From NCBI GenBank assembly GCA_030447725.1, contig JAUJOQ010000001.1:842823-906822 (forward strand): a stretch of 64,000 nucleotides of DNA, given 5' to 3'. Both the position numbers and the translations under genes were made by a program. This document shows, piece by piece, positions 4,934 through 28,804 of this stretch (position 1 is the stretch's first letter; each line of letters opens with the position of its first letter). Origin of the DNA: Thermoleophilaceae bacterium. GTDB taxonomy: Bacteria; Actinomycetota; Thermoleophilia; Solirubrobacterales; Thermoleophilaceae. Under the pieces are notes generated by a model. That model ran no database searches, was not told where the DNA came from, and was given only the letters and a program-made list of their open reading frames with translations.

Positions 4934-4944
4934 CAGGTGTCGAG

Positions 4945-6100: not shown

Positions 6101-6149
6101 GGCCTGCCGTTACGAACCTGGTTCTGGAGAGCTCGGTCAGAGTCCCGGT

Positions 6150-7123: not shown

Positions 7124-7125
7124 AC

Positions 7126-8089: not shown

Positions 8090-8382
8090 TCGAAGAAGGT
8101 CGTCATCGGCGAGGACATGCAGGGTCGCGTCATTCCGAAGGCGAAGCGAATGGGAGCGGAGTACTACGACACGCCATACCTTCCGCTGGCTCAGCGCATG
8201 GGGGCGACTGGGGACTACGTCGCCTTCGAGTCGGACGCGACCCAACTACGGCGTCAGCGACACGAACGCTGCCGGCGACGTATACGTTGGCTTTCGGGAC
8301 GGCGCCATATGATCGCGACGAAGCGGTTCAGGTTCTGAACCATGCCCGTCGTGAGGTGAGCAATGGAACCTTCCCGCAGTAG
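8090..8382 (+). pseudogene. Frameshifted toxin tip before the Imm11-like gene
   Basis: Coherent text appears in successive frames: 'KKVVIGEDMQGRVIPKAKRM' and 'GAEYYDTPYLP', then 'YGVSDTNAAGDVYVGF', then 'APYDRDEAVQVLNHARREV' ending at TAG 8380-8382 inside the next gene. The opening pattern is common in Rhs/polymorphic-toxin tips. At least two frame changes make it non-functional. The final frame overlaps the Imm11-like start by 20 bases. Confidence 0.5.
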
Positions 8383-8959: not shown

Positions 8960-8998
8960 CCGACACCCGCCCCTGTCGCACCCCGGCAAGGCGGGGTC

Positions 8999-9922
8999 TC
9001 AGGGAGCGACGACGAGCTTGTGATGGGGCCCGGCGGCCTGGGCCTGCCAGGCCGCCGGCGCCTCGTCGAGCGCAAAGCGCTTGACCTCTACGCTGATCCG
9101 GCCCGCGCGGGCGTGCTCGGTGAGCGTGGAGTAGGCGTCGGCTTGCACGTGCGGCGCAACGAAATGGTTGCCATGCCCGATGTGGGTGCGGCCCATCAGC
9201 GAGCCGAAGGGGATCTCGGCTGTGGCGCCGGCGCCCGAGCCGATGGTCACGAGCCGGGCCCCGGGTGCGGTTGCGCCGAGCGCGGCGGCGAAGGGCGGAC
9301 CGTAGATCGGATCGATCACCACGTCGAAGCCGTCGCCCGCCTCGGAGGAAAGGGCCTGAGGGTCGCCGCCGCCGCCGAGCACCACGGTGGCGTCGGCGCC
9401 CAGCCGCGTCGCTCGCTCGAGCGCCGAGGCGTCGCGGCCGGCCGCCACGACGCGGCCGGCGCCGAGGACCTTTGCGGCCTGCACGGCGATCTGGCCCACC
9501 ACGCCGGTGGCACCGAGCACGAGCACGCTCTCGCCGCTGCTCAGGTGGGCGTGGTGGGTGAGCGGCAGCCAGGCGGCCAGGCCGGCGATCCCCATGCAGA
9601 CGGCCAGATCGTCCTCGAGCCCGTCTGGCACGGGAAGCACCCGGTCGCGATCGACGAGGGTCTGCTCCGCCCACGAGCCGTACGGACCGATCGGTGAGTT
9701 GAAGTACACGCGCCGGCCGTCGGGCAGCGGGCCGACACCCTCGCGCCCGACCACGGACGGGATCTCCAGCGGGCCGGCGGCTCCGGAGGCCATCGCTAGG
9801 TCGAACGGGTTGAGGCCGGCCAGGCTCACCTCGATCGCGACCTGTCCTTCCCCGGCGCTCGGCGCCTGGAAGTCTCCGACCTCGGGGGTGGCTCCTACGG
9901 CGTTGAGGATGGCTGCCCGCAT
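8999..9922 (-). CDS. Zinc-independent MDR-family oxidoreductase (quinone oxidoreductase-like)
   Basis: 307 residues from an ATG. N-terminal GroES-like domain ('VSLAGLNPFDLAMASG'), then a Rossmann NAD(P)H site 'VLVLGATGVVGQIAVQAAK' at about 135-155. The zinc ligands of alcohol dehydrogenases are absent, which points to the quinone oxidoreductase/enoyl reductase branch. The substrate is unknown. It lies tail-to-tail with the toxin/immunity locus and head-to-tail with DUF899. Confidence 0.85.
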   Translation of the reverse strand: MRAAILNAVGATPEVGDFQAPSAGEGQVAIEVSLAGLNPFDLAMASGAAGPLEIPSVVGREGVGPLPDGRRVYFNSPIGPYGSWAEQTLVDRDRVLPVPDGLEDDLAVCMGIAGLAAWLPLTHHAHLSSGESVLVLGATGVVGQIAVQAAKVLGAGRVVAAGRDASALERATRLGADATVVLGGGGDPQALSSEAGDGFDVVIDPIYGPPFAAALGATAPGARLVTIGSGAGATAEIPFGSLMGRTHIGHGNHFVAPHVQADAYSTLTEHARAGRISVEVKRFALDEAPAAWQAQAAGPHHKLVVAP

Positions 9923-10713: not shown

Positions 10714-10860
10714 TCATTAGACCGTGCAGCGGCGCGGAAGTCATCGTTCGAGACGGCCAACGAAGGGGGTCCGGGCGGCGCGGGAGCCCGGCGCTCATTG
10801 GTAGGGTCGCGGCGGCCCCGATGGCGGGCGCAGCAAGAGCGGGGAGAGGCGGAGCGGCAC

Positions 10861-13800
10861 ATGCGCGGGGTGATCACAACGGCGGCGGTCGGCCTCTCGC
10901 TTCTGCTCTGCTCCGGGGCCGGCGCGGCACCCCAGCCGCAGCCGTTCGGCACGGGCGACGCCGGCGGCTTTCGCAACATCCTCCCCGCCGGGCAGAACGG
11001 CCACGCCGACGCCGCGCAGGTGGCCGCCTTCCTCTCAGCGGGAGCGCGCCCCCCGCACGACAACGACCAGCTGGCGCCCTATACCGACCTGCTTTTCGCG
11101 AGCCCCGCGCTCGACGCCAACCGCCTTGACGACTTCTTCAAGGACGCCACCTTCGGGGTCCGGGAGGGAGAGGTCGAGCACACCTACAGCCCGCGCGACG
11201 ACGTGACCATCCAGCGCGACCGCGGCTTCGGCGTGCCGCACATCTACGGCTCGAGCCGCGACGGCGCGATGTTCGGCGCCGGCTACATCGGCGCCGAGGA
11301 CCGCCTGTTCCTGATGGACGTCCTGCGCCACGTCGGGCGGGCGGAGCTGTCCTCCTTCGTCGGCGGCTCGGAGGGCAACCGCGAGATGGACCGCAAGCAG
11401 TGGCGCGTGGCGCCCTACACCGAGGCGGACCTCCAGCGACAGGTCGACCAGTTGGACGACCTCTACGGGCAGCCGGGACGGCAGGTGCAGGAGGACGTGG
11501 CCAACTACGTCGCGGGGATCAACAAGTACATCTGCGAGGCGATGCCGGCCAACCCCGACTGCGTCGCCGAAGGGATCAGCTCGAGCCCCACCCCCGGCTC
11601 GAAGAACGGCGCGACACCGGTGCAGAAGCTCCCGGGCGCCTACGCGGCGATCACCCCGGATGGTGAGCCCACGGCCAAGCCGGAGCTGTTCACGATCACC
11701 GACGTGATCGCCACGGCCTCCCTGGTGGGCGCGATCTTCGGGAAAGGCGGGGGAGCCGAGCTCGACGCCTCCCAGGTGCTGCAGGCCGCCGTCGACAGGT
11801 TCGGAGCCGACGGCAACGAGGTGTTCGAGGACTTCCGCCGCGCGGAGGACCCCGAGGCGCCGGTGACCACCGACAAGCCGTTTCCCTACCGCGTGCCGCC
11901 CGACAGCCCGGCCCCCGACAGCGCCGGGCTCCCTGACGCCGGCAGCGTCGACCCCAGCGAGGTGGTGGTTACGGGAGCTTCGCCCGGCCTGCCCGGCGGT
12001 CTGCTCGAAGGCCTCTCGGACCAGGAGGGCAGCGCCTCCAACTCGCTGGTCGTGTCCGGGGCCGAGTCGGAGTCCGGCCGGCCCGTCGCGGTCTTCGGTC
12101 CCCAGACCGCCTACTTCTCGCCCCAGATCCTGATGGAGCTCGACATCCACGCGCCGGCGGTGGACGGCAAGCCGGCGATCGCCGCCCGCGGCGCCTCCTT
12201 CCCGGGCGTGAACCTCTACGTGCAGCTGGGGCGCGGGCCCGACTACGCCTGGAGCGCGACCTCCGCCGGCCAGGACATCGTCGACACCTTCGCGCTCGAC
12301 CTGTGCGACCCCGCCAACCCCACCGCCCAGGTGGACCTGGCGGCCACCGGCTACCGCTACCGCGGCAGATGCGAGCCCTTCGAGGAGCTGCGGCGCACCA
12401 ACCGTTGGGTGCCCAACGCCGCGGACCAGACCCCGCCGGGCAGCGAGACCCTGCTGACCAGGAGGACCAAGCTCGGGCTGGAGATCGCGCGCGCGCGGAT
12501 CGGCGGCACGCCGGTGGCCTACGTGCAGCTGCGCAGCACCTACCTGCATGAGGTGGACTCGGCGATCGGATTCGTCGACTTCAACACGCCCGACCGAATG
12601 GACACGCCGCTGGAGTTCCAGCAGGCGGCGAGCAGGATCGGGTTCACCTTCAACTGGTTCTACGTGAACGGCAGCGACACCGCGTACTTCAACTCGGGCA
12701 ACAACCCGGTGCGCCCGGCGGGCAGCGATCCCGACTTCCCCGTGCGCGCCTGCCCGACGGCCGCCACAGACCGCTGCAAGTACGAATGGGAGGGCTGGAA
12801 CCCAGACTCCTTCGTCTCCGCCTACACACCCTTCGAAGAGCACCCCCAGGACGTGAACAAGCCCTTCTTAACCAGCTGGAACAACAAGCAGGCACCCGGC
12901 TACCGGGCGGCCGACGACAACTTCGCCTACGGCTCGATACACCGCTCGGAGCCGCTGGACGACGGCATCAACGCGCGCATCGCCGGCGCGGAGAAGGTGA
13001 CCCGGACCGAGCTGGTGGACGCGATGGAGGACGCCGCCACCGTCGACCTGCGGGGGAGGAAGGTGCTGCCCTTTTTGATCAGGACGTTGGCCTCCGACGG
13101 CGACCCCCGGGTACGCGACGCGCTGGCAAAGCTCGAGGCCTGGCAGCGCGCCGGCGCTCACCGACGCGACGAGAACGGCGACGGCGTCTACGAGCACAGC
13201 GAGGCGATCAAGATCATGGACGCGTGGTGGCCGCGCCTGGTGGAGCAGCAGTTCAAGCCGGCGCTCGGCGAGCCGCTGTACGACCGCCTGACGGAGATGA
13301 TCGGCATCGACAACCCGCCGCACACGCGCCAGGGCTCGGCCTACATCGCCGGCTGGTACTCCTACGTGGAGAAGGACCTGCGCGCGGTGCTCGGCGACGA
13401 CGTGGCCGGCGGCTTCTCGCGCCGCTACTGCGGCGGCGGGGACCGCGCCGCCTGCGAAGAGGTGCTGCGCACCACGCTGAGGGAGGCCGTCGCGGAGCCG
13501 CGCAGCCGGGTCTACTCAGACCCCCAGTGCGACGAGGCCGACAACGCGGCGCTCGACGACCAGGTGTGCTTCGACGCCATCGAGTACACCGCGGTCGGGG
13601 CCGTGACCCAGCCGCTGCAGCGCTGGCAGAACCGGCCGACCTTCCAGCAGGTGGTGGAGGTGGGCGCCGAGCAGGCCGCGGCGCCGGCCCCCGGCCCGGC
13701 CGCGGCGCCCGCGCCCGACACCAGCGAGCGCCGTCAGCCGCGTCGCGAGCGCCGCTCCGAGCGGGGGGAGCGCCGAGAGCGCCGGTCCGAGGCGCCCGCG

Positions 13801-15963: not shown

Positions 15964-16058
15964 CGGAGGGGCTCATCGGCCGCAACGGGCTGTGAACCAG
16001 CTGGTCATTGCCCGGGTGAACCTTCTCGGTCGGGCTTGCGAAGACCGGTCAGTGGGAT

Positions 16059-16655
16059 TTGACCGACAGTGGGACGCAGATGGCCGCGGTCGCCATCGAT
16101 GCGATCGCGGCTGAGGAGGCCGCGCTGGTGGCGCGCGTCGCAGCCGGGGACGACGGCGACCCCTTGGTCGCCCTTTACGAGCGCTACAGCTCGCGGCTTT
16201 ACGGGCTGGGGGTGCGGCTTCTGGGCGACACAGGCATGGCTGAGGAGATGGTGCAGGAGACCTTTGTACGGCTGTGGAGAGGGGCGGGGCGCTTCGATCC
16301 CGACAGGGGGTCGGTGAGGACCTACACCTACACGATCGCCCGCCGCGTGGCGGTCGACCTGCACCGCCGCGCGGCATCGCGGCCGCTGCGGACCACCGAG
16401 GGAGAGGAAGCGGACGAACAAGGCGTCGGCGACTCGGAGTTCGAGAAGTTGATCCTCGGTCTCGACCTGCGGGACGCTTTGCGCTCGCTGTCGGCCAAGC
16501 ATCGCGAGATCCTCGAGCTGTACCTCGACGAGGACCTGAGCCAGCCACAGATAGCGGAGCGACTGGGCATCCCGGTCGGGACCGTCAAGACGCGTACGTT
16601 CTACGGGCTCAGCGCACTGAAGCTCGAGCTGGAGGAGAGGGGACTCATTGGCTGA
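16059..16655 (+). CDS. ECF-type RNA polymerase sigma factor
   Basis: 198 residues from TTG 16059 (ATG 16080 is an alternative). Region 2: 'YERYSSRLYGLGVRLLGD' and 'AEEMVQETFVRLWRGAGRF'. Region 4: 'LSAKHREILELYLDEDLSQP' and 'IAERLGIPVGTVKTRT'. It directs RNA polymerase to a small regulon. The next gene, overlapping by eight bases, encodes its likely membrane anti-sigma factor. Confidence 0.92.
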   Translation: MTDSGTQMAAVAIDAIAAEEAALVARVAAGDDGDPLVALYERYSSRLYGLGVRLLGDTGMAEEMVQETFVRLWRGAGRFDPDRGSVRTYTYTIARRVAVDLHRRAASRPLRTTEGEEADEQGVGDSEFEKLILGLDLRDALRSLSAKHREILELYLDEDLSQPQIAERLGIPVGTVKTRTFYGLSALKLELEERGLIG

Positions 16656-17400
16656 GCACCGACCGCCGGATGTCGATCTCGGCGGATACCTGCTCGGCAA
16701 GCTCGAGCCGGGCGAGCGCGCGAGGGTTGAGCAGCACCTGGCCGCCAACCCGGAGCTGCGCGCCGCCGCGGCGGAGCTTGGGGCTGTCGTCGATCTCATG
16801 GAGCGTGCGGCCCCTGCCCACGTGGTGCCGGTCGGTCTCGAGGCGCGCACCTTCCGCGCGCTCGAGCGGGCTATCGGCGAGGAGGAAACCGATCGGGGTG
16901 CCCGCGTCCCGGCTCCGCGGGGACGCGGCATCCGGCTGCCACGGTTCAACGTGTCGCTGCGGCGGACGGCTATCGCGGTGGCGGCTATCGCGGCGCTCGG
17001 CGCAGCGGTGCTCGCGGGCTCGCTCCTCGACGGCGAGGAGGGCCCGCCCGGGACCTTCGAGCTGCGAGCATCGCTCACGGCCCCGGACGGGAAACGGCAG
17101 GCGAACGCGGTCGTGCGCGAAACCGGCATTGGGCGCGTCGTCAACTTCGACTCGCAAGATCTGCCGATCCTGCCCAAAGGCGAGTATTACGCGCTCTGGT
17201 TCGTCGGCCCCGGAGACTCGCCCGCCTCACCCAACCGCATCTCGGCCGGTACGTTCCACCCTGATCCTGAGGGCGGGTCGGAGGTCACCTTCGCCGCCGC
17301 GGTGGACCCGGAGAAGTATCCCGTGCTCGCAGTGACCGAGGAACGGGGCGACGGTGACCCCGCCCCGACTTTCCCCGACGTGTTGCGCTCAGCGCGGTGA
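16648..17400 (+). CDS. Membrane anti-sigma factor, RskA-like
   Basis: 250 residues from TTG 16648. N-terminal helical anti-sigma domain ('LGGYLLGKLEPGERARVEQH'), one membrane segment at about 110-130 ('TAIAVAAIAALGAAVLAGSL') and an exported beta domain with 'GEYYALWFVGPGD', as in anti-sigma-K factors. The HxxxCxxC zinc site is absent. It should hold the ECF factor until an envelope signal triggers release, probably by proteolysis. Confidence 0.85.
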   Translation: MAEHRPPDVDLGGYLLGKLEPGERARVEQHLAANPELRAAAAELGAVVDLMERAAPAHVVPVGLEARTFRALERAIGEEETDRGARVPAPRGRGIRLPRFNVSLRRTAIAVAAIAALGAAVLAGSLLDGEEGPPGTFELRASLTAPDGKRQANAVVRETGIGRVVNFDSQDLPILPKGEYYALWFVGPGDSPASPNRISAGTFHPDPEGGSEVTFAAAVDPEKYPVLAVTEERGDGDPAPTFPDVLRSAR

Positions 17401-17484
17401 CGCCAACTCAACGCACGCGTCGCGGTGTGCATCCGCGCCTAGTTGCTGCGTGACGCTGAACCAAACCGGGCCTCGCCGTCGTAA

Positions 17485-17847
17485 CGCCGAGCCGAGATAA
17501 CCGGCAAGGGCGACCCGGACGCCGAGGGTCAGTCGGTCGTCAACTTCTCGAAGGGCACAGGCCGGTTCAACGGGCGCATCACGGTGCGCAACCTCGATCC
17601 GGGCGAGACATACCGGTTCTTCGTACGCAGGGGCGCCACCGAGACACTCGTTTGCGAGGGCGAGGCAAACAGGCAGGGTCTGTTTACGTGCAACGCGCAG
17701 CAGATCGAGCTGCCCGGATTCGTCGAGGCGGTTGTGCGAGACAGCGCCGGGATGGAGGACGCAAGCGGCGTCTTCGCCCGTCGTGGCAACTGCCGCGACC
17801 CCGAGCAGATGGGCTCGCTGTGCAAGGCCCCGGGGCAGAACAAGTAG
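17485..17847 (+). pseudogene. Secreted protein lacking its signal peptide region
   Basis: In one frame the text reads 'ITGKGDPDAEGQSVVNFSKG' then 'TGRFNGRITVRNLDPGETYR' to the stop at 17847, with a cysteine pair typical of exported proteins. It begins right after a stop at 17482-17484 and lacks a signal peptide; the only start inside is GTG 17584, which would cut off part of the domain. A lost 5' end or frameshift is likely. Position after the sigma/anti-sigma pair suggests it was a target of that system. Confidence 0.5.
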
Positions 17848-17870
17848 CCCCGAGCTCGTAAGTCGTCGAA

Positions 17871-17897
17871 CCCCGGGGAGCTCTCATCTCCCCGGGG
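17871..17897. terminator. GC-rich hairpin, probable transcription terminator
   Basis: Perfect 10-bp stem CCCCGGGGAG/CTCCCCGGGG around a 7-base loop, 24 bases after the preceding stop. No T-run follows, as is common in high-GC Actinobacteria. Confidence 0.6.
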
Positions 17898-17981
17898 GCG
17901 TGCTGTTGTGCTGTCGATGCCATCGGTCGGTGCAATGTCAGGTAGGCTCGCCGCCGCAATGAAATCGTCGAGGGAGATACC

Positions 17982-18533
17982 GTGATGACCCCCGCTACCA
18001 GCCCGTCTGGGCGAAATGCGAGCCCCATCTTGCTTGCCGTGCTGCTCGTCGCTGCCGTGGGCCTCGCCCTGCTCTTCGTGGGCCTCTTTCTCGACTGGTA
18101 TCAGCTCGGGGCTGAGGGTCAGACAATCACGGCAAGCGGGTGGACCTCGTTTGAAATGGTCGACGTCGCGATCGTCCTCATCGTTCTCGCCGGGCTTTGG
18201 CTGCTCACTCGCCTTTACTCGACCGCCGAACGCGGTACCGAGCGACTACTGGTTCTCGGCATCGTCGCGCTGGTGGTCGTGGGCCTTCAGTTGGTAGAGA
18301 AGGCGCCCACCATAGAAATCATTGCGAACACTCCAGGCAGCGGCGTGTCGGACTCACTCGAGACGGGCGCGTTCGTTTCACTTGCCGGCGCAGTCCTTCT
18401 CCTGATAGCCGGAGTGCTGAACCTCGCCCGGAGCGCTGAGGTCCGCGCGCGCGCCGGCGATACTGCGCCGGTCGGTCCGGGGGGCCCTGTGACAGGCGAT
18501 CCGCCCACGCGGCAAGACGTTGGCCTCCGGTGA
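17982..18533 (+). CDS. Four-helix membrane protein, hypothetical
   Basis: 183 residues from GTG 17982. Hydrophobic helices at about 16-37, 58-78, 88-105 and 128-148. No family recognised. Its stop codon abuts the partial tRNA-Val copy at 18534. Confidence 0.7.
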   Translation: MMTPATSPSGRNASPILLAVLLVAAVGLALLFVGLFLDWYQLGAEGQTITASGWTSFEMVDVAIVLIVLAGLWLLTRLYSTAERGTERLLVLGIVALVVVGLQLVEKAPTIEIIANTPGSGVSDSLETGAFVSLAGAVLLLIAGVLNLARSAEVRARAGDTAPVGPGGPVTGDPPTRQDVGLR

Positions 18534-18588
18534 TGGGCGCGGGTGGTTTCGAGCCACCCCCTCTCGCGTGTGAAGCGAGTACGCGCCC
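18534..18588 (-). pseudogene. tRNA-Val(CAC)-like sequence without D arm, distal attachment-site copy
   Basis: On the minus strand GGGCGCG and CGCGCCC form the acceptor stem, CTCGC-TTCACAC-GCGAG the anticodon arm (CAC) and GGTGG-CTCGAAA-CCACC the T arm. The D arm is completely missing, leaving 55 bases. The 47 bases at its 3' half match the functional tRNA-Val at 26285-26356 with a few changes. Best explained as a leftover of integration at tRNA-Val. Confidence 0.75.
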
Positions 18589-18788
18589 TTGTCGAAGCAC
18601 CGCATTCAGAGCCTGATAGCGGCGCTTCAGGAGGTCGGCGCGGACGCTCGGCGTCCGGTCGGAGCAGGGGCTTCCGCCTGGTTTGCTCCATAGACCGGTC
18701 TTCTGGACCAAACGTGGCCGGTCGTCTGTCCTGAACGCGCCGGTCGACCTGACTATCCTTACATTGGAACCAAGAGTAAGGAGAAGTG

Positions 18789-19037
18789 ATGGATGCAAGA
18801 GCCAAGGTGACGTCGAAGGGCCAGGTGACGATCCCCAAGAGCGTGCGGGAGGCACTCGAGCTGCAGGACGGCGACGAATTGCTCTTTCGGGTCGAACGCC
18901 GCCGCGCGTTGGTCGCCAAGACACCGGACTTCTTGGATCTCGCCGGCGCAGTCCCCGTGCCGATAGCGAAGCGCGGCACACCGTGGGACGAAGTGCTTCG
19001 TCGCACGCGCGGCGAGCGCGCCGGACGGCGACGCTGA
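18789..19037 (+). CDS. vapB: AbrB/VapB-type antitoxin
   Basis: 82 residues from ATG 18789, after the site AAGGAG; a GTG three bases upstream is possible. 'KVTSKGQVTIPKSVREAL' is the swapped-hairpin AbrB DNA-binding fold used by MazE/VapB antitoxins; the basic C-terminal tail should wrap the toxin. It likely represses its own promoter. The stop overlaps the toxin gene. Confidence 0.85.
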   Translation: MDARAKVTSKGQVTIPKSVREALELQDGDELLFRVERRRALVAKTPDFLDLAGAVPVPIAKRGTPWDEVLRRTRGERAGRRR

Positions 19038-19426
19038 CGGCATTCCTGGACACAAACGTCCTGATCCGCCACCTCACCGGCGACCCACCCGACCTGGCCG
19101 CGCGCGCCACCGCCGTCCTCGCGGGAAGCGGCCGACTTCTCCTGACGGATCTTGTGCTCGCAGAGTGCGTCTACGTCCTCGAGTCCTACTACGAGGTCGA
19201 GCGCGCACGAGTCACCGAGCTGATGCGCTCCGCGATCGCGCTCCCCACGATCGAGGCACTCGATCCCCCCACGCTTTTACGAGCGCTCGAGGTCTACGAG
19301 CTCGATCGCGTCGACTTCGCCGAGGCATACCTGGTCGCACAGGCAGAAGCCACCGGCATCAACGAGGTCCTCTCCTTCGACCGATCCATCGACAAGATCC
19401 AGAGCATCACCCGCCGCGAACCCTGA
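19034..19426 (+). CDS. vapC: VapC-type PIN-domain ribonuclease toxin
   Basis: About 130 residues. 'FLDTNVLIRHLTGD' gives the first acidic residue, 'LVLAECVYVL' the conserved Glu, and 'VDFAEAYLVAQA' with 'VLSFDRSIDKI' the remaining acidic residues of PIN RNases. No ATG, GTG or TTG is available; the only candidate is CTG 19034, which overlaps the antitoxin stop as CTGA. Otherwise the gene is intact and 3' complete. Confidence 0.82.
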   Translation: MTAFLDTNVLIRHLTGDPPDLAARATAVLAGSGRLLLTDLVLAECVYVLESYYEVERARVTELMRSAIALPTIEALDPPTLLRALEVYELDRVDFAEAYLVAQAEATGINEVLSFDRSIDKIQSITRREP

Positions 19427-19650
19427 CCACGCCGTCGCACCGCTCGTACTGCCGGAGCGCGGGCGATGCCGGCCCGCTGCTCTCTGCGCTGTGCTCACCA
19501 TGGCGCTTGTTGGCCGCGCGCACGCACGCCGGCTGTCGTTATCGCTTCCGCGCCGAAAGGAGTCGTGGGCGCGGAGACTTCCAGCGCTACTGCTTCTGCA
19601 CCGCAAGCGGCAGATCGCCCCGTCTCATGCGAACGTCTCCGGATGCCCTT

Positions 19651-19851
19651 CTAGGTCACTGCTGAGACGTAGAGCACCCGCCCCGCCTGCTCGAGTACAA
19701 CAACCCGCTCGCCCTCGGCAAACTCGGCCTTCGGGTCATACGAGCGTGCAGGGAAGGCTTGACTGCCTCCTTGGAGGGACACCATCACCTCACCTTCCTC
19801 GTTCGGCTTGATGGTCGCCGACACGCGCACGACCTCACCGTCGAGGTTCAT
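19651..19851 (-). CDS. NfeD-like small protein
   Basis: 66 residues from an ATG overlapping the flotillin stop (ATGA). The beta-rich text 'EGEVMVSLQGGSQAFPAR' and 'GERVVVLEQAGRVLYV' looks like the soluble OB-fold of NfeD proteins, which are usual partners of flotillins. The membrane part seen in longer NfeD proteins is absent. From 19427 to 19650 I see nothing. Confidence 0.6.
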   Translation of the reverse strand: MNLDGEVVRVSATIKPNEEGEVMVSLQGGSQAFPARSYDPKAEFAEGERVVVLEQAGRVLYVSAVT

Positions 19852-21180
19852 ACCGGCGCCTGGTCCTTAGGCAACGTACCCTCGCCCGCCGGCTCGCGCC
19901 CATTGAGCTGGCCTCTCGCCATCCCGAGCGCCGTGCCGACGCTGGTGAGAACCGACGTCATTGCGTTCGTCATCCCGTCTGCGCCGTCGAGAAGCGTGAT
20001 CGAGTCGACGTTGTCGAAGGCAGATGCCATCGCCCTCACGATCTCTGGGTACTGCTCGGCCACCTGCTGGGCGATGATCGCCTCCTGGTTGCGCTCGAGC
20101 GCATTGCCACGCGCTTCAAGCGCGGTGCCCTCGGCCTCGCCCTTGGCTTTGATGACGTCGGCCTCGGCAATGCCCTGCGCCTTGTCGGCCTCGGCTCCGG
20201 CCTCGCCCTTCGCTTTGATGACGTCGGCTTGGGCGATGCCCTGCACCTTTTCGGCCTCGGCCTCCCTCTTGCCCGCCTCGGCACGGCCCTCGGCCTGCCG
20301 GATCATGGCGTCGCGGCTACCTTCCGCCTCCTTCGCCAACCGATACGCCTCGGCGTCGGCCGGCCTGCGGACCTCAGTCTCGAGCTCGCGTTCACGCCGC
20401 TCAGCCTCCAACTGGGCTACCTGCGTCTGCTGCTCCACGACGGCCTTGCGAGCCTCTGCATCAGCCTTCGGACCCGCCTGCTGTGCCTCGGCTTTCACTC
20501 GATCGACCTCCGCTTGGGCGTTCGCTTGCTTGATCTCGCTCGCGCGTGCCGCCTCCGCCACGAGCGCCGCCTGCTGAGACTCTCGTTCCGACGCCTCGCG
20601 GTTGTTGTTGGCCTGAGCGACACGCGCGAGCTTCTCGACCTCTGCCAACTGCGGAGCTGCCACCCGCTCGATGTACCCCGTCGGGTCATCGATCTCGGCG
20701 ATCTGCAAGGAGTCGATGATGAGCCCCATCTTCTCCATGTCGTGACCGGTCGCCTCGCGAGCCTCCTTGGTCAGCGCCTCCCGGTCGCGAATCAGATCCT
20801 CAACCCGAAGGGACCCCACAATCCCGCGAACGTGCCCGGCGAACAGCTCGTGGACCCGTTCCTCCATGGTGTTCTCCTTCTCGAGGAACCGCCGCGCTGC
20901 ATTGGCGATCGAGCCGTAGTCGTCACCGACCTTGAAGGCGACGACTCCCGTTACCACGACTGGGATTCCCTGGGTCGTGTAGAACTGACCGGAACAGTCG
21001 CCCTTTCCGTAGATCGAGGGAGAGCCGATCTGAAGCCTGGAAGATCGGCCAGACGAATGCGCGATCACCGGTGACGATCTTGTAGCGCATCGTCTCCTCG
21101 GCGATCTCCGCCGTTCCCTTTCCCTTCTTGCCGGAGATGATGAGCGCCTCGTTGGGCCCTGCTATCTCGAAGAACGCCAT
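19848..21180 (-). pseudogene. Flotillin (SPFH protein) interrupted by a frameshift
   Basis: ATG 21180 after GAGGAGG opens 'MAFFEIAGPNEALIISGKKG' and continues to 'SDRLSLDLRK', the N terminus of flotillin. Near 20990-21040 the reading must change frame to 'TTQGIPVVVTGVVAFKVGDD', which then runs intact through the SPFH domain and a long Ala/Glu/Lys coiled coil to a TAG at 19848. Flotillins scaffold membrane microdomains. Either a real inactivating change or an error of one base; the rest is well conserved, including the downstream NfeD-like partner. Confidence 0.8.
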
Positions 21181-21542
21181 TTGCTTCCTCCTCTGCACCG
21201 CATGGCCGTCAGGCACCGTCGATTAGTAGGACGTGAACACGCCCACAGTTAATGTTCTCTTCCTCTTCCCTCGTAGTAGCTGAGGCAGATGTTCTCGCGC
21301 GATCGTACTCCCGGCAGAGCCAGATCGGACCGGTCGTCATCATCGTCTTTCTAGTACCGCTGCGGGCCCTGTAGTAGAACGGACTGTCACGATGCCCGAA
21401 GTAGCCCAGCGGGGGCGCAGGGAGGTTCTCGGCACCGAGCACGGGCCGAGCGCAGGAGGACTTCCGATAGGGTGGCTGTGGTCGCGGGGGGTGGGCTTTC
21501 GTGCCTGTCGAATAGAGACCAGCCGCGGCTCGGAACATCGGG

Positions 21543-23282
21543 GTGGATGACACCATCAAGGCATTCCATGCACCCATGCTTCTCCGGGCAGGGCTTGGGC
21601 TGCTGGCGGCAGCCGGCGTCTGGACGGTTGGCCTGCAGGATGCCGATGCCGGCGTCGAGAGTTCCCGTCCGGCAATCCCCCTGGGAGCCGCGATCAACTA
21701 CGAGCGACTGCAGCAGGACCCGCTAGAGATGCATACCTACAGCGGTGGCTTCAATGCGTTCACGCCGGAGAACGCGATGAAGATGGAAAGCCTGCAGCCG
21801 CAGCGGGGCGTCTTCGACTTCACCAAGGCCGACGCCATGGCCGCCTGGGGCAGCTCGCGAGGTCTGCGTATGCGCGCCCACACCCTGGTGTGGCACAACC
21901 AGTTGCCGAGGTGGGTGCGGCAAGCCGGTCAGGTGCGCTCACGCCAGGAGATGATCGACATCATGACCGAGCACATCCGCACCGTCATGGGCCACTACCG
22001 CGGCGAATTCGCGGAGTGGGACGTTCTCAACGAGGCCGTCACCCAGGACGGCTTGCTGCGCACCGAAAGCCCCTGGCACGAAGCTATCGGACCGGAGTAC
22101 GTCGAGATCGCGTTCCGTGCGGCTCGTGCCGCCGACCCGTCGGCCAAGCTCTTCTACAACGACGACGGCATAGGCCTCCCGGGTCGCCACCAAGACGGGG
22201 TCTACAACCTCGTTCGCGACTTGAAGGCCAAGGGACTTATCGACGGCGTCGGCTTCCAGTCGCACATCTCCAACATCTACTACATCGACACACCGGCCCT
22301 CGTCAGCAGCCTGAACCGCTTCGCCTCGCTCGGGCTCCAGGTCGCGATCACCGAGGCCGACGTCCGCATCCACGTCGACGACCGGCCTATGAGCCACGCC
22401 GACAGCCTCCAGCTGCAGCGTGACCGCTACGTCCGTCTGGCGGCCGCCTGCTACCAGGTCGAGGCCTGCACCTCGTTCACGGTCTGGGGCGTCTCCGACC
22501 GCGACTCGTGGTTCGGGCCTTATCAGGCTCCGCTGCTCTTCGACACCGAGTTCGCCAGGAAGCCGGCCTACGACGCGGTCGTGCGCACACTCCGGACAGG
22601 GTTCCCGGGATCCCTGGAGGCGGCGTCGCCGCCCACCCCCGTACCGGTGTCATCCGGGGTCTCCGGCACGGGGTTGACACCGACCCTGATCGAGCCCCCC
22701 GTTCCGGAGCGCTACCGCTGCGTACGCGGGCGCAGGCGTGCCCCTCGCCACCTGTGTCGCGTCCCAGTCCGTTCCAGCCACCGCGGCCAGCCGACCGCAC
22801 CGGACCCCGAGGAATTCGACAGGGACCCCAACCAGCCGAGCGTCCGGCGCCCGTCGGCGCGAAGACTGTTGAACACCGTGACCCTCGCGGGAGACCCTCT
22901 CGAGGTCGCCGGCGACATGGAGCTGAGCCTGGGGCTCAACTCAGGCCGCAAGGCCCGCGCGCGGGTCTCCGGCGACCGGATCACGTTCGGCAGGGGGAGC
23001 TATCGGATCAAGACCTGCGTGGCTGCGACCCGCGGCGCGGCGGGCGTCAGGGCCAGATGCGCCAGCCGTCGGGTGCGCGTGCGCCGCGTGAACTCGAGGA
23101 TCGTCGCTCCTCCCGCAGTGAGCCTGGTCATCCCCCGCCCGCGCGGATCCCGAAAGTGCTTCGTAACAGGCAGGGTCACCATCCACGTCAAGAGCGGGGG
23201 CGGCTTCGAGCCGATCGGCAGCTCCTTCAAGTCACTCGAGGACGCTCGTTTATCGGTGCCCGCCGGCGGGATCCCGGCCTAG
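21543..23282 (+). CDS. GH10 endo-1,4-beta-xylanase with C-terminal extension
   Basis: 579 residues from GTG 21543 (ATG 21576 is an alternative). Signal peptide at about 10-37, then a complete GH10 barrel: 'FTPENAMKMESLQPQRG', 'LRMRAHTLVWHNQLPRW', acid/base Glu164 in 'WDVLNEAV' and nucleophile Glu271 in 'ITEADV'. Residues beyond about 365 form a Pro-rich linker and a beta-type domain of about 150 residues with an R/C-rich start, perhaps a binding module. It should cut xylan outside the cell. The 360-bp stretch 21181-21542 before it holds no gene I can support. Confidence 0.92.
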   Translation: MDDTIKAFHAPMLLRAGLGLLAAAGVWTVGLQDADAGVESSRPAIPLGAAINYERLQQDPLEMHTYSGGFNAFTPENAMKMESLQPQRGVFDFTKADAMAAWGSSRGLRMRAHTLVWHNQLPRWVRQAGQVRSRQEMIDIMTEHIRTVMGHYRGEFAEWDVLNEAVTQDGLLRTESPWHEAIGPEYVEIAFRAARAADPSAKLFYNDDGIGLPGRHQDGVYNLVRDLKAKGLIDGVGFQSHISNIYYIDTPALVSSLNRFASLGLQVAITEADVRIHVDDRPMSHADSLQLQRDRYVRLAAACYQVEACTSFTVWGVSDRDSWFGPYQAPLLFDTEFARKPAYDAVVRTLRTGFPGSLEAASPPTPVPVSSGVSGTGLTPTLIEPPVPERYRCVRGRRRAPRHLCRVPVRSSHRGQPTAPDPEEFDRDPNQPSVRRPSARRLLNTVTLAGDPLEVAGDMELSLGLNSGRKARARVSGDRITFGRGSYRIKTCVAATRGAAGVRARCASRRVRVRRVNSRIVAPPAVSLVIPRPRGSRKCFVTGRVTIHVKSGGGFEPIGSSFKSLEDARLSVPAGGIPA

Positions 23283-23308
23283 GAACTGAGCCGAGAGGCA
23301 GGGGGCAG

Positions 23309-23355
23309 TGGGCGCGGGTGGTATCGAACCACCGACCTCTCGCGTGTGAAGCGAG
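23309..23355 (-). repeat. Partial copy of tRNA-Val 3' half (attachment-site scar)
   Basis: 47 bases identical to 26285-26331 except one, covering the anticodon arm, variable loop, T arm and 3' acceptor strand. The 5' half of a tRNA is absent. Same orientation as the functional gene, as expected for the far end of an element integrated at the tRNA 3' end. Confidence 0.85.
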
Positions 23356-23540
23356 CCGGCAGCCGAGCGTTGATCCGTCAGAATGTTGCTCTACGACCGG
23401 GTTGCGCCGACGCCCTCAAGGGGATCGTGTCGGTCGGATATGCCCGGATATGCGGCGATGTGCGCGGATAAGGGCACTGGAACGACACCAGTGCCCAAAC
23501 GACGGGCGCAGCGACTCCAGGGCGAGGAGCGTCGGAGAGA

Positions 23541-23592
23541 CCTGGTTGTGGTCCAGGCGGTCGCGGGTTCGAGTCCCGTCGCTCACCCCTCG
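23541..23592 (+). pseudogene. 3' fragment of a tRNA-His(GTG)
   Basis: The strand reads CCTGG-TTGTGGT-CCAGG, an anticodon arm with GTG, followed by a variable loop and the T arm GCGGG-TTCGAGT-CCCGT and a 3' acceptor end. No D arm or 5' acceptor strand lies upstream. Looks like a second attachment-site remnant. The common spurious minus-strand frame with 'GTRTRDRLDHN' overlies it. Confidence 0.6.
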
Positions 23593-23741
23593 GAAAGGCC
23601 CGCTCAAACCGGGTTCTCGCGTTGAATGGGCTGCGCGAGCGGGCCGCCGTCCACCAATCGTCCACCAATCTCGCATCCCGGCGGAGGGTTCCAGGCCTCT
23701 GAGGATGTTCAGCCGCTGAACATCGGGGTAGTCCCAGTCGG

Positions 23742-24275
23742 ATGGCTCGCGATCCCGGAGAGCGTCCGACCGAGCACCTCCCGCCCACGGACCCGGTGGC
23801 GCGGGAGGCCGTGGTGGCGCGCGAGCCGGTCGTGGCCGCGCCGGTCGACCCGCTGTGGGCCGAGCGGCTGGAGGACCAGGTCCGCTCGCTCAGGGGACTG
23901 ATGGCGCTGCTGGCAGTGCTCGCCCTGGGGGCGCTCGGACTCAGCCTCTACACGTTGCTGCGTGACGAGGACGATCGCCGTGGCGCCAGCCCCGAACGGG
24001 TGGAACGTCTGGACGAGAGGGTGGATCGGCTCGAGCGGCGGCTCGGCAGCACGACCAACCAGGCCGAGGTGGCGCGTCTGAAAGACGGTCTGGACGCCAA
24101 GGCCGACGCCCGGAGCGTCGAGGAGCTGACCAGCGAGGTCGAGAAGCTGCAGGCCGCGCTCGACGAGGCCAGCGCCGCCGACGACACCTCCGCTGAGACC
24201 GTGGCCCAGCTCGATGAGCGGGTCGACCAGCTCTCGGACCAGGTCGAGCTCCTGGCCGGCGAGTCTGGTCAGTAG
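23742..24275 (+). CDS. Coiled-coil protein with one membrane helix
   Basis: 177 residues from an ATG. A membrane helix at about 52-70 ('GLMALLAVLALGALGLSLYT') is followed by heptad-rich coiled coil ('VERLDERVDRLERRLG', 'VAQLDERVDQLSDQVELL') to the end. No family name. It sits between decayed integration genes but its own frame is clean. Confidence 0.65.
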   Translation: MARDPGERPTEHLPPTDPVAREAVVAREPVVAAPVDPLWAERLEDQVRSLRGLMALLAVLALGALGLSLYTLLRDEDDRRGASPERVERLDERVDRLERRLGSTTNQAEVARLKDGLDAKADARSVEELTSEVEKLQAALDEASAADDTSAETVAQLDERVDQLSDQVELLAGESGQ

Positions 24276-24545
24276 AGAAGCCCGCGGGGCCTGGACGGGC
24301 CCTTCCACGAAGCAGGAGACCGCCGATCTCGAGATCTGCCGGCGCTCGAGGTGCGCCCGCTGCGCGAGCTGGACCTCGAGGCGCCCTCCGCGCCGGGACG
24401 CCCCGCCCATCTACCGGCCGCCAGCGGCGTGGTCCGCCGGGGACTTCGTGTACGCGATCGGCGACGACGAGCTGTCGATCGGCGTCTTTCGCCTCTCCGA
24501 TGCAGAGGTCGCCCGTCGCCACGCAGTGAGCCGCAAGTGGGCCTG

Positions 24546-24794
24546 GCCGAGCTGCCGGAGCGACCTCACCCGCGCACCCTGCGGCGGACCTTCGCCTCCC
24601 TGCTCTTCGCACGCCGCGAGGAGGCGGCCTACGTCATGGCCCAGATCGGCCACACCGACCCGAAGGTCACCCTGGGCATCTACGCCGGGGTGGCGTTCCG
24701 GGGCGAGGGCGAGCGCGAGCGCATGCGACAGCTCGTCGAGGGCGGCGACCTCGACCGGGGAGCGGACGGTCCTCGCGCAGCAGCCCGTCGTTGA
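24546..24794 (+). pseudogene. C-terminal remnant of a tyrosine recombinase (integrase), copy 1
   Basis: 'RTLRRTFASLLFARREEAAY' followed by 'VMAQIGHTDPKVTLGIYAGV' contains the second catalytic Arg, the His of GHTD and the nucleophile Tyr of the phage-integrase family. Upstream of 24546 no integrase text remains. The tail 'ERERMRQLVEGGDLDRG' matches that of the second integrase remnant nearby. The stretch 24795-25200 holds no gene I can support; a weak minus frame there has no family. Confidence 0.8.
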
Positions 24795-25200
24795 TCGCGA
24801 TCGTGATCCTTGTACAGCGCCGTGTAGAGGCCACGCAGGCTGAGGATGTCGCGGTGATCGCCCGCCCGCGGGGGGCGGAAGCCCGGCGTGATCAACCCAC
24901 GCACCGACTCGGGGCGGGGGGTCGATCGCGAGCCAGCAGAGATCACGACGCGCTCGTGCGGGGCGCGCACCAACACGGCCGGATCCGAGGGCCTGCGTTC
25001 GCTTGATAGCAGTCCGATGCTCTTGAGGAGCCCGGCCATTTGGGCGACTAGGGCAGTGGCGATCAGCCGCCACCAAGACTCGCGGTAGAACCGCTCTGGA
25101 AGCCTCGGGTTGACCAGTCCGACCAGTTCGGAACGATCCGGCGAACGGGCGGGTGCGTTCTGCCGCCGCCACCACAAGCTGGTCGAGGGCGCGCGGGCGA

Positions 25201-25455
25201 CTACTGCCGCGTAGCCCAGTGCATGAGTGCCATGAGCTTGCGGCGCACCGGATCGAATCTCACGACGACCGCGAGCAGGAGGAGGCACACGCCAGCAGAT
25301 GCCACGAACGCCAATACCCCGTAGGTGAATGAAAACGCGAATCCGACCGCCAAGCCGACCGCGAGGCCAACGCCCAGGACCAGGCCAAAGGCGGCGAGCC
25401 GCTCGGGGTTGACGCCTCGGTCAGCGCTCGGGGTCACCGCATCCTGCAAGCGCAA
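25201..25455 (-). CDS. Small two-helix membrane protein, hypothetical
   Basis: 84 residues. Two hydrophobic segments ('FGLVLGVGLAVGLAVGFAFS' and 'VLAFVASAGVCLLLLAVVV') with a charged end 'RFDPVRRKLMALMHWATRQ'. No family. It sits between the two integrase remnants and may be cargo of the integrated element. Confidence 0.5.
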   Translation of the reverse strand: MRLQDAVTPSADRGVNPERLAAFGLVLGVGLAVGLAVGFAFSFTYGVLAFVASAGVCLLLLAVVVRFDPVRRKLMALMHWATRQ

Positions 25456-25524
25456 GGGGTCGGTGATCGCTTGCTCATGATGGCGCGCGGTCGAGCCGCA
25501 ATCCAGACGATCGCGGTAGACTGC

Positions 25525-26115
25525 TTCTCGCGACGCTGACCTTCGCCGGCCTGCGGATCGGAGAGGCGCTCGCCCTGCGCTGGCGCGAGGTCGACCTCGC
25601 CGGGCTGGCTCCGCGTTCGCGACTCCAAGACCGACGCCGGCTTGCGGCTAGTGAGCACGTCCCCGCGCTCCAGGAAGAACTCGTGGGGCCAAGCTCCGAT
25701 CAGGCTCCATCGACCCGGCCGGGTTCGTGTTCGCGATCCGAAACGGGACCGCCCAGAACCGTCAGGAACCGCGTCCTCGCCCGGGCCGTCGAGCGGGCCG
25801 ACCTTCGCCTCGGCGAGCAGGGGCTCGCCCGGCTGCCAGAGGGCCTGACCCCACACAGCCTGCGGAGGACGTACGCCTCACTGCTCCTGGCGAAGGGCGA
25901 CAAGGTCCCTACGTCCTGCGGGAGCTCGGCCACACCAGGCCCTCGGTGACGCTCGGCGTCTATGCCCAGGTCATGTTCCGAGCCGACGGTGAGCGCGAGC
26001 GCCTGCGACAGCTCGTCGAGGGTGGCGACCTCAACCGGGTCGAGGAGGCTGCTCGCACAACGGCCCGTCGCCTCGGCCTGGCGTTGCGGCCCCGCAGACC
26101 CCGGCGCCTGTCGGG
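25525..26115 (+). pseudogene. Tyrosine recombinase remnant, copy 2, next to tRNA-Val
   Basis: Successive frames give 'LTFAGLRIGEALALRWREVD' (first catalytic Arg), 'RVRDSKTDAGLRLV', 'EGLTPHSLRRTYASLLLAKG' (second Arg and His) and 'LRELGHTRPSVTLGVYAQVM' (His and Tyr). At least three frame changes are needed, so it is dead. Its end lies about 170 bases from the tRNA-Val gene, the usual place for an integrase that uses that tRNA as attachment site. Confidence 0.85.
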
Positions 26116-26284
26116 AAAGGCGGTAGCGAGCTCAGGTTGCCGAGCTCCGCCTCGTCGGTATCCACGCGCCAATGCCCCAGCGATTGGCCACTATCGGGCA
26201 CTGCGCGGCCCCAGAGCGTCGAGGCCGTCACCACGAGAACCCTTCAGCACGAAGAAAACCCAGCCTCAGCGGGGCTTCCTGGCA

Positions 26285-26356
26285 TGGGCGCGGGTGGTTT
26301 CGAACCACCGACCTCTCGCGTGTGAAGCGAGCGCTCTCCCACTGAGCTACGCGCCC
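26285..26356 (-). tRNA. tRNA-Val(CAC)
   Basis: 72 bases with all arms: acceptor GGGCGCG/CGCGCCC with discriminator A, D arm GCTC-...-GAGC, anticodon arm CTCGC-TTCACAC-GCGAG and T arm GGTGG-TTCGAAA-CCACC. CCA is not encoded. Two partial copies lie at 23309 and 18534, so the gene has been an integration site at least twice. Confidence 0.97.
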
Positions 26357-26633: not shown

Positions 26634-26907
26634 GGACCGTGCTAGGCGGGGAGTTAGCGGTGCCCTGTATTCGCAATCCGCTCTAGCGAGGCCGAATTCC
26701 CGTCCGAGGGGCTGTGTCCTTCGGGGTCAGTACGCCGGACCGAGGTGTTGATGGTCGGGTCCCGCGCGGTGAGCGACTGCGAACCAGGTCAGATCCGGAA
26801 GGAAGCAGCCTTAAGCGGACCCGCTCATGCGCCGCGGACCAGCCTGACCGGAGCGGAGGCCGGCGGGCACGCCCGAAAGACAGGTCTCGACGACGGGTGC
26901 ACGGTCC
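26634..26907 (+). ncRNA. ffs: Signal recognition particle RNA, large Bacillus-type with Alu domain
   Basis: The ends GGACCGTGC (26634-26642) and GCACGGTCC (26899-26907) pair perfectly and give 274 bases. The 5' part 'GCGGTGCCCTGTA' followed by 'GCAATCCGCTCTAGC' is the Alu-domain core of the Bacillus scRNA type. The S domain has 'GAACCAGGTCAGATCCGGAA' and 'GGAAGCAGCCTTAAGCGG', the Ffh-binding GGAA/asymmetric loop. It lies upstream of dnaX, a common neighbourhood for this gene. It binds Ffh to target membrane and secreted proteins. Confidence 0.93.
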
Positions 26908-26921
26908 ACTGAGATCCAGGT

Positions 26922-26960
26922 GCGGTGCTCGCCCGATCGGCGATCGGGCTTCGCTCCTCC
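26922..26960. repeat. Dispersed palindromic repeat, copy near dnaX
   Basis: Contains GCCCGATCG-G-CGATCGGGC (26931-26949). Together with its flanks it is close to the reverse complement of elements at 41621-41658 and 42428-42465 (shared GGAGGAGCGnAGnCCGATCG and GAGCACCGC). It lies 15 bases after the SRP RNA, where the hairpin might also end transcription. Confidence 0.75.
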
Positions 26961-26992
26961 CCCGAGTCTCCGCTGTCCGTGGCACGGCTAGC

Positions 26993-28804
26993 ATGAGCCC
27001 CTCGATGCTTTCCCTCTACCGCCGCCACCGCCCGAGGACCTTCGACGAGGTCGTGGGCCAGGAGAGCGTGGTGCGCACGCTGCGCAACGCGATCGAGCTC
27101 GGCAAGGTCCACCACGCCTACCTGTTCGTGGGTTCGCGGGGCACGGGCAAGACCAGCATGGCCAAGCTGCTGGCCTGCGCGCTCAACTCAGAGGGCGGTC
27201 CGCGCACCGACTTCTCACCCGAGGATCCGGTCTGCCGCGCGATCATGACCGGCAGCTCCCTCGACGTGGTCGAGATGGACGCCGCCTCCAACAACTCGGT
27301 GGACGACATCCGCGAGCTGAGGGAGAACGTGGCCCTGTCGCCCATGGGGGGCGCCCGCCGCGTCTACATCCTCGATGAGGCGCACATGCTCTCCACCGCT
27401 GCCTGGAACGCCTTCCTGAAGACCCTCGAGGAGCCGCCCGCGCACGTGGTGTTCGTGCTGGCCACCACCGAGGCGCACAAGGTGCCGGCCACGATCGTCG
27501 ACCGCTGCCACCGATTCGTGTTCGGGCGGCCGTCGCTCGAGCAGATCGCCGGCGTGGTCAAGCGCGTCGCCGCCGAGGAGAGCGTCACGATCCCCGACGC
27601 CGCGGTCGGCATGATCGCCCGCAAGGCCGCGGGCAGCTTCCGCGACGCGCTCGGCACCCTCGAGCAGCTCGTCACCTATGGCGGCAGCGAGATCTCCCTC
27701 GAAAGCGTGCTCGAGACCCTCGGCGCCGCCAGCCCGCGGCTCATCCTCGACACCACCGAGGCGCTGGTGGAAAGCGATCCACGCCTGGCGCTCGAGTCGG
27801 TGCAGCGCCTGGCGGAGTCCGGGCGTGACCCCGAGCAGTTCATGCGCGACCTGGCGGGCCACCTGCGCCACCTCTTCGTGCTGCAGACGATGGGCTCGGT
27901 GCCCGACTCCTTCGCCGTCACCGCCGAGTGGTCCGACCGGCTCACCTCGCAGGCCGAGCGGCTTCCCCAAGCCGCGATCATGCGCGCGATCGAGCTGCTG
28001 GCCGTGGCTCTCGCGGCGGTCAAGGAGGGCTCGGAGGCGCGTCTGGCGCTGGAGGTGGCGCTGCTGAAGGCCACCCAGCCCCAGGCCGACCAGTCGGTTC
28101 AGGCCCTGATGTTCCGAATCGATCAGCTCGAGGCCCGGCTTGGCCACCCTTCCGGTGAGCCGGCGGCGCCCGCCGCCGAGCCGGAGCCCGCGTCCGCCTC
28201 CCCGGCGCCGCGCGACGGCCTCCCGGCGGGCGCGCCCGAGGCTCCCGTGACCGAGACCGCCGTGCCCGGCGTCTCAGCCGCCCGTGAGCCGGCGCGGGTG
28301 AGCGCGGCCGGCGGAGCGGCCGTCGCGGTCGCCACCGCCGAGGCCGAGCCCGTGACCGGCTCGGAGCCCATTGCGGCACCGGTAGCCGTGGCTGCGCCCG
28401 TCCCCGAGGCCGCACCGCGAATGGACCTCGAGCGAATCGCGGGGCTGTGGGGAGTGGTGGCCGAGGCCGTGCGCGAGCAGAACGGGATGATGGGCGCCCT
28501 GATCGCCGGATCGGTGCCCTGCGCCCTGGACGGCGATCGCCTGATCGTCGCCTTCCCCGAGGAGGCGGCCTTCCTCAAGAAGAAGGCCGAGGCCAACCGC
28601 GAGCTGGTGCTCGCCGCGCTGCGCAGCCTCACGGGGCAGAGCTTCGTCGTCGCCTTCGAGTTGCGCAAGCCCGCCGAGGAGGCAGCGCCCAGGACCCTCG
28701 GCGAGGAGGATCTGATCGAGGGCCTCATCCGCGAGTTCGGCGCGGAGGAGGTCTTCGAAGACCAGAATTTCGAAGATAGCTCCGCTCCCGACATGAAGGA
28801 CTGA
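26993..28804 (+). CDS. dnaX: DNA polymerase III subunit gamma/tau
   Basis: 603 residues. ATG 26993 puts 'MLSLYRRHRPRTFDEVVGQE' at the N terminus; longer frames upstream would run through the SRP RNA. It is the clamp-loader ATPase: Walker A 'GSRGTGKTS', Walker B 'VYILDEAHML', sensor 'VLATTEAHKVPATI'. The zinc module normally after Walker A is degenerate: 'LNSEGGPRTDFSPEDPVCRA' has one cysteine of four. An Ala/Pro/Glu-rich linker (about 385-470) leads to a C-terminal domain. ybaB follows after five bases. Confidence 0.95.
   Translation: MSPSMLSLYRRHRPRTFDEVVGQESVVRTLRNAIELGKVHHAYLFVGSRGTGKTSMAKLLACALNSEGGPRTDFSPEDPVCRAIMTGSSLDVVEMDAASNNSVDDIRELRENVALSPMGGARRVYILDEAHMLSTAAWNAFLKTLEEPPAHVVFVLATTEAHKVPATIVDRCHRFVFGRPSLEQIAGVVKRVAAEESVTIPDAAVGMIARKAAGSFRDALGTLEQLVTYGGSEISLESVLETLGAASPRLILDTTEALVESDPRLALESVQRLAESGRDPEQFMRDLAGHLRHLFVLQTMGSVPDSFAVTAEWSDRLTSQAERLPQAAIMRAIELLAVALAAVKEGSEARLALEVALLKATQPQADQSVQALMFRIDQLEARLGHPSGEPAAPAAEPEPASASPAPRDGLPAGAPEAPVTETAVPGVSAAREPARVSAAGGAAVAVATAEAEPVTGSEPIAAPVAVAAPVPEAAPRMDLERIAGLWGVVAEAVREQNGMMGALIAGSVPCALDGDRLIVAFPEEAAFLKKKAEANRELVLAALRSLTGQSFVVAFELRKPAEEAAPRTLGEEDLIEGLIREFGAEEVFEDQNFEDSSAPDMKD

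What the first reader, a model, noticed from the sequence alone, without database searches (positions are those of the whole stretch)
18534..26356. Two stacked integration scars behind tRNA-Val
The functional tRNA-Val(CAC) (26285-26356) has a 47-base 3'-half copy at 23309-23355 and a further copy at 18534-18588, all in one orientation. Two decayed tyrosine recombinases lie between the tRNA and the first copy, one 170 bases from the tRNA, as expected for integrases using that tRNA. The outer segment (18589-23308) carries a VapBC pair, a broken flotillin-NfeD unit and a GH10 xylanase. So two elements appear to have been inserted one after another and have since lost mobility.
Basis: partly seen in the sequence, partly recalled or inferred. 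Interest (0 to 1): 0.7.

Follow-up and report, generated by a model that had tools for sequence, protein, structure and literature searches.

The report
Decayed stack of tRNA-Val insertions
In an uncultured actinobacterium (family Thermoleophilaceae), the DNA beside a valine tRNA gene is the worn-down remains of mobile elements that inserted there one behind another, at a spot that relatives across the whole order use repeatedly as a landing site.

Summary
tRNA-Val(CAC) 26285-26356 (-) has a 47/48 copy of its 3' half at 23309-23356 and an older copy at 18534-18588, the only two extra copies in the 3.17-Mb genome. Two broken tyrosine integrases lie between the tRNA and the inner copy. The element reading holds with corrections: (1) the outer copy is a full-length tRNA-Val lacking only its D arm; (2) a perfect 48-nt tRNA-His 3'-half copy (23541-23588) was missed; (3) the outer segment has no integrase, and integrases A and B are as distant from each other as from those of other genera, so insertions number at least two, probably more; (4) integrase A is fused to a fragment of an unrelated gene. 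Relatives share the dnaX side of the tRNA and nothing on the other side. About a third of 44 comparable genomes of the order have an integrase and/or 3'-half copy there. One (G113) still carries a readable stack: two full tRNA-Val genes, two 3'-half copies, integrases. In that integrase group the gene reads antisense through the tRNA and stops inside it, so integration replaces its C-terminus, as in phage Mx8. The island is a decayed member of a known kind; the order-wide hotspot is the more useful result.

The parts
26285..26356 (-). tRNA-Val(CAC), intact; attachment site, rebuilt by the last insertion
   Evidence: conserved beside SRP RNA and dnaX in relatives
23309..23356 (-). copy 1: tRNA-Val 3' half, anticodon stem to 3' end, 47/48 identical; displaced by the inner insertion
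18534..18588 (-). copy 2: full-length tRNA-Val remnant lacking the D arm (16-nt deletion); outer boundary of the island
23541..23588 (+). tRNA-His(GTG) 3'-half copy, 48/48 identical to the gene on contig C10; attachment core of a tRNA-His type
23435..23454 (.). tandem repeat CGGATATGC[CG] left of the tRNA-His core; candidate arm site (inferred)
23648..23669 (.). tandem repeat CGTCCACCAAT x2 right of the tRNA-His core; candidate arm site (inferred)
23742..24275 (+). ORF of 177 aa, membrane segment plus coiled coil, function unknown
24320..24500 (+). 5' fragment of an unrelated protein gene (whole in G005:C25), joined to integrase A
24552..24752 (+). integrase remnant A: C-terminal 67 residues only; box-II His replaced
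25509..26029 (+). integrase remnant B: most of the catalytic domain, frameshift near 25900; C-terminus toward the tRNA
18786..19037 (+). vapB-like antitoxin (AbrB/MazE fold)
19019..19426 (+). vapC-like PIN-domain toxin
19651..19851 (-). short NfeD-like ORF (66 aa); named by resemblance, no family match
19848..21216 (-). flotillin gene broken by a frameshift near 21040 into two ORFs
21543..23282 (+). GH10 xylanase ORF, intact, 579 aa
16059..17400 (+). left flank: ECF sigma factor and anti-sigma genes, chromosomal (85% DNA identity in G002)
26637..26904 (+). right flank: large SRP RNA
26957..28804 (+). right flank: dnaX, conserved with the tRNA in the order

Best explanation
18534-26284 is a decayed composite island in tRNA-Val(CAC). 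Small integrative elements with a tyrosine integrase recombined their tRNA-half attachment core with the part of the tRNA from anticodon to 3' end. Each insertion rebuilt a complete tRNA and pushed the previous 3' half outward, so later elements lie nearer the tRNA. Two tRNA-Val scars remain (inner younger, outer older), together with two broken integrases of one tRNA-targeting group. A tRNA-His core of the same kind came in with one of the elements or with co-transferred DNA. Shown: the copies, their orientation, the integrase remnants, the hotspot in relatives, and a stack in G113 that is still readable. Inferred: order and number of insertions, cargo (VapBC, flotillin, xylanase) arriving with the outer element, and loss of that element's integrase by deletion.
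For: Only two extra tRNA-Val copies in the genome, both within 8 kb downstream in the same orientation. Integrase remnants beside the tRNA with the C-terminus toward it, as in relatives. Synteny is kept for more than 10 kb on the dnaX side and is absent on the other side in all relatives. The interior has no DNA counterpart in the genus beyond tRNA pieces and scraps, while flanks do. Cargo lacks orthologs in the genus. 15 of 44 comparable genomes have a copy and/or integrase downstream of this tRNA; the upstream side has 1 locus in 49. G113 carries a stack with two full tRNA-Val genes, two 3' halves and integrases. Integrases A and B are not closer to each other than to those of other genera. 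The outer copy is more decayed than the inner one.
Against: No empty-site strain: G003, the closest congener, does not have this locus assembled. The outer segment has no integrase. No tRNA-Val copy lies between integrases A and B. The outer copy is full-length, not a half. Composition does not set the island apart. The last 1.1 kb left of copy 2 also lacks relatives, so the left edge is not independently confirmed. The assembly is a MAG.
Confidence: 0.85

Rival explanations
1. The stack arrived in one event: a pre-formed tandem array or composite element, already carrying the inner tRNA-Val copy and the tRNA-His core, integrated once.
For: Tandem arrays exist at this tRNA (G113); the tRNA-His core shows that composite structures reach this site.
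Against: Copy 1 and copy 2 differ in decay, and integrases A and B are unlike each other; both fit separate arrivals better, but neither excludes this.
Confidence: 0.15
2. One element only: integrases A and B arose by duplication inside it, and copy 1 is an internal duplicate of the attachment site.
For: A and B share 77% of bases over 163 bp. A 2.6-kb near-identical tandem duplication of an integrase unit exists in G102.
Against: A and B are no closer to each other (62% of residues) than to integrases of other genera (60-63%), so a local duplication would have to be very old. Only about 60 residues can be compared.
Confidence: 0.08
3. No elements: the copies come from tandem tRNA-Val gene duplication, with ordinary gene shuffling in a variable chromosomal region.
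For: The outer copy is full-length, and synteny on that side is lost in all relatives, with or without integrases.
Against: The inner copy ends at the anticodon stem, like most copies in relatives. In L057 and L104 the displaced copy differs from the present tRNA; in L057 it has the family-consensus bases, as expected if the element supplied the new 3' half. Integrases of one group sit beside the tRNA.
Confidence: 0.04

Closest known systems
tDNA genomic islands and tandem arrays as catalogued by Islander (PMC4383910)
   Same: Intact tRNA, displaced 3' fragment downstream in the same orientation, anticodon-centred crossover, tyrosine integrase inside, more than one fragment at one tRNA
   Different: Integrases broken; the outer segment has none; the outer fragment is a full-length tRNA lacking its D arm; an additional tRNA-His fragment
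Tandem stack at tRNA-Val(CAC) in G113 (L231, contig JAUJPF010000021.1, Solirubrobacteraceae MAG YX3bin6)
   Same: Same tRNA, same side, same integrase group, several tRNA-Val copies in one orientation, units of about 2.9-6.5 kb, an internal full-length tRNA-Val
   Different: Integrase domains still recognisable at two of three units; different cargo (metal-dependent repressor, oxidoreductase); the internal tRNA is intact
Phage Mx8 of Myxococcus (attP inside int; PMC6070905)
   Same: Relatives of the window's integrases read across the attachment site, so integration gives the integrase gene a new 3' end
   Different: Here the tail is the antisense of a tRNA-Val gene and the carriers are small elements without recognised phage genes; in the window itself the frame is broken
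Suicidal integrases of archaea (SSV, pTN3, pT26-2; PMC8371274)
   Same: Attachment site inside the integrase gene
   Different: Archaeal genes are split between N- and C-terminal parts; here the catalytic domain stays whole and only the last residues change

Membership tests
tDNA genomic island (Islander criteria) | Intact tRNA gene with a displaced end fragment on the correct side and in the same orientation | tested here: met
   3' fragments downstream, same strand
tDNA genomic island (Islander criteria) | Tyrosine integrase gene inside the interval | tested here: met
   Remnants A and B lie between the tRNA and copy 1; both are broken, so it is not an active island
tDNA genomic island (Islander criteria) | Strain-specific DNA bounded by the fragments, with an empty site in relatives | tested here: inconclusive
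   Interior absent from congeners, but no exact empty site was found and the left flank is rearranged
Tandem array of tDNA islands (Islander definition) | Each member has its own fragment and its own integrase | tested here: not met
   Two fragments, but both integrase remnants lie in the inner segment and none in the outer. It looks like a decayed array; it does not meet the definition as it stands
Integrase with overlapping attachment site (Mx8-like) | Integrase reading frame continues across the attachment core | tested here: inconclusive
   Met in relatives; window remnant B is frameshifted and out of frame with the tRNA-encoded tail
Mobile element still able to move | Intact integrase and excision from the chromosome | tested here: not met
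   No intact integrase in 18534-26284

The most novel reading that the evidence does not exclude
The island is the relic of an order-wide group of small, stacking elements whose integrase takes its last ~20 codons and stop from the antisense strand of the host tRNA, so that integrated and free forms carry different C-termini (integrated ..VKRALSH*, free form predicted ..VKRDEG....PPEQGRLF*), a self-switching integrase. The predicted free-form tail is conserved between two families, and the three base changes in its last nine codons are all synonymous.
Probability: 0.45. Interest if true: 0.55.

Novelty: new member of a known kind. Interest (0 to 1): 0.4.

Why it matters
The window alone is an ordinary relic. 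Its value is that it points to a conserved landing site, tRNA-Val(CAC) beside SRP RNA and dnaX, used again and again by small elements throughout Solirubrobacterales, an order represented here mostly by MAGs, with a readable stack in G113 and integrases that read through their target tRNA. That gives a set of natural cases to test whether integration switches integrase C-termini, and a promising attB and integrase pair for genetics in these bacteria.

Tried and rejected
Third tRNA-Val copy between integrases A and B: none. Copies elsewhere in the genome: only other tRNA genes. Composition as island evidence: GC 63-72% inside, like the flanks; uninformative. Homology of the 23742 ORF to the coiled-coil gene beside tRNA-Val in G002: none. 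Source of the tRNA-His core in the own tRNA-His locus: no integrase within the 20-kb stretch around it. Relatives of the G001 integrase in viral contigs: none. GH10 on plasmids: no match above 60% identity, about 42% at best among the listed records. Copy 2 as a functional D-armless tRNA: rejected as unlikely, since the first base of the T loop is changed and the D arm is absent. Tail-only hits at L059, L103, L111, L114 and L130 look like the tRNA itself in translation and were not counted as integrases.

Full report
Setting. The window lies at G000:C1:842823-906822 of a 3.17-Mb genome in 13 contigs. The best named relatives by DnaX are Thermoleophilaceae and Solirubrobacterales MAGs.

Observation. 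tRNA-Val(CAC) is at 26285-26356 on the minus strand, so its 3' end faces left. Copy 1 (23309-23356) matches 47 of 48 bases from the tRNA 3' end to the anticodon stem and then diverges. Copy 2 starts at 18534. Alignment scores of 96, 92 and 80 stand against 32 or less elsewhere in the window and 30-39 for shuffled queries. Genome-wide, only these two non-tRNA copies exist. Copy 2 was described as one more copy, but it also holds the nine bases of the 5' acceptor strand directly after the anticodon stem. The 16-nt block with the D arm is missing, and acceptor, anticodon and T stems can still pair. It is therefore a decayed full-length tRNA gene.

Bases 23541-23588 (+) are identical over 48 nt to the 3' half of the genome's tRNA-His(GTG) on contig C10, again from the anticodon arm to the 3' end. 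Short tandem repeats flank it at 23435-23454 and 23648-23669. I read this as an attachment core with integrase arm sites of an element that targets tRNA-His; that is inference. Another orphan tRNA-His 3' half lies at G002:C4:92984 near tRNA-Pro(GGG), and an integrase of the same group faces tRNA-His in G226.

Integrases. Remnant A (24552-24752) is only the C-terminal 67 residues, and the sequence before it (24320-24500) is a fragment of another gene that is longer in G005. Remnant B (25509-26029) keeps most of the catalytic domain with a frameshift near 25900. A and B share 62% of residues, no more than each shares with integrases at the same tRNA in other genera. That argues for separate arrivals, weakly, because only about 60 residues can be compared.

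Flanks and cargo. Right of the tRNA, SRP RNA (26637-26904), dnaX, ybaB and recR are shared by relatives, and gene order is kept for more than 10 kb in G001 and G002. Left of the tRNA, no gene of the window is shared at that position in any relative. Chromosomal genes left of the island exist elsewhere in congeners (16014-17396 at 85% in G002; 10776-13680 at 90% in G003). The stretch 18580-26284 matches congeners only in tRNA pieces and short scraps. GH10 relatives in the genus are at most 45% identical, and no flotillin ortholog was found there. So the tRNA copies bracket DNA foreign to the genus, although the last kilobase before copy 2 (17397-18533) is also unmatched.

A recurrent site. Among 49 loci with tRNA-Val(CAC) and downstream sequence (44 after I removed duplicate contigs by hand), 15 have a tRNA-Val 3'-half copy and/or a tyrosine integrase downstream; on the upstream side only one locus has an integrase hit. 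Copies in relatives start at the tRNA 3' end and most stop in the anticodon arm. In L057 and L104 the displaced copy differs from the present tRNA, and in L057 it has the family-consensus bases, as expected if the element supplied the new 3' half.

A readable stack. G113 (locus L231, contig JAUJPF010000021.1) holds, in one orientation, tRNA-Val at 16814-16885, a second full tRNA-Val at 12280-12354, and 3'-half copies at 5809 and 2873. Integrase domains abut the tRNA at 12280 and the copy at 5809, and an integrase tail remnant abuts the tRNA at 16814. Units are about 2.9, 6.5 and 4.5 kb, similar to the 4.7- and 2.9-kb segments here. The internal full-length tRNA parallels copy 2, and the tail-only remnant shows how a unit can lose its integrase.

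Integrases that read through their target. In the Val(CAC)-targeting members the integrase frame continues antisense through the tRNA and ends at a TGA 61-63 nt into it. Counting those that keep the catalytic domain, these are L056, L106/L201, L117/L234, L202, L203, L206, L210, L231 and L233. Members at tRNA-Asp, -Met and one at -Arg do the same at 55-62 nt, while others at Arg, His, Pro, Gly and Val(TAC) stop 19-64 nt before the tRNA. At distal copies in G005 and G113 the frame continues into a different tail ending PPEQGRLF*; in its last nine codons the three base changes are all synonymous. Mx8 of Myxococcus is the known precedent for an integrase given a new 3' end by integration (PMC6070905). 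The window's remnant B is out of frame with the tail and cannot test this.

Mechanism and limits. The best account is serial integration of small tyrosine-integrase elements at one tRNA, followed by decay. The order (outer older) rests on the greater decay of copy 2 and on the general geometry of tRNA insertion. The number of events is at least two at tRNA-Val; the tRNA-His core and the two unlike integrases suggest three or more. No empty-site strain was available. The Islander definitions of an active island and of a tandem array (PMC4383910) are not fully met because the integrases are broken and the outer segment has none.

Novelty. The window is a decayed member of a known kind. I did not find this hotspot or the tRNA-encoded integrase tail in Solirubrobacterales in the papers searched, but that library lacks most subscription journals.

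Noticed in passing
window 984-9000: An 8-kb stretch with Imm1 and Imm11 immunity genes and a duplicated ORF (3580-4062 and 8363-8956, 83% of residues alike) is absent at the same place in congener G003 (contig C68), where the sequences either side are 87-93% identical.
   Followed up: partly
window 41593-41740, 42326-42505, 26919-26965: Dispersed REP-like repeat: 61 matches in the own genome and dozens in congener G003.
   Followed up: partly
L231 (G113:C91:44000-62000): Stack at tRNA-Val: two full tRNA-Val genes, two 3'-half copies, integrases; one outer integrase reads into a 3'-half copy with the free-form tail.
   Followed up: yes
L242 3595-8779 (G102): Tandem duplication of a 2.6-kb unit (two small ORFs and an integrase), 99.8% identical, beside tRNA-Val.
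   Followed up: no
L181 6984-7031 (G002:C4:92984): Orphan tRNA-His 3' half about 215 bp downstream of tRNA-Pro(GGG).
   Followed up: no
L246 6361-6726 (G000:C9): The same genome has another integrase of this group facing tRNA-Gly(GCC), so other tRNA islands probably exist in it.
   Followed up: no
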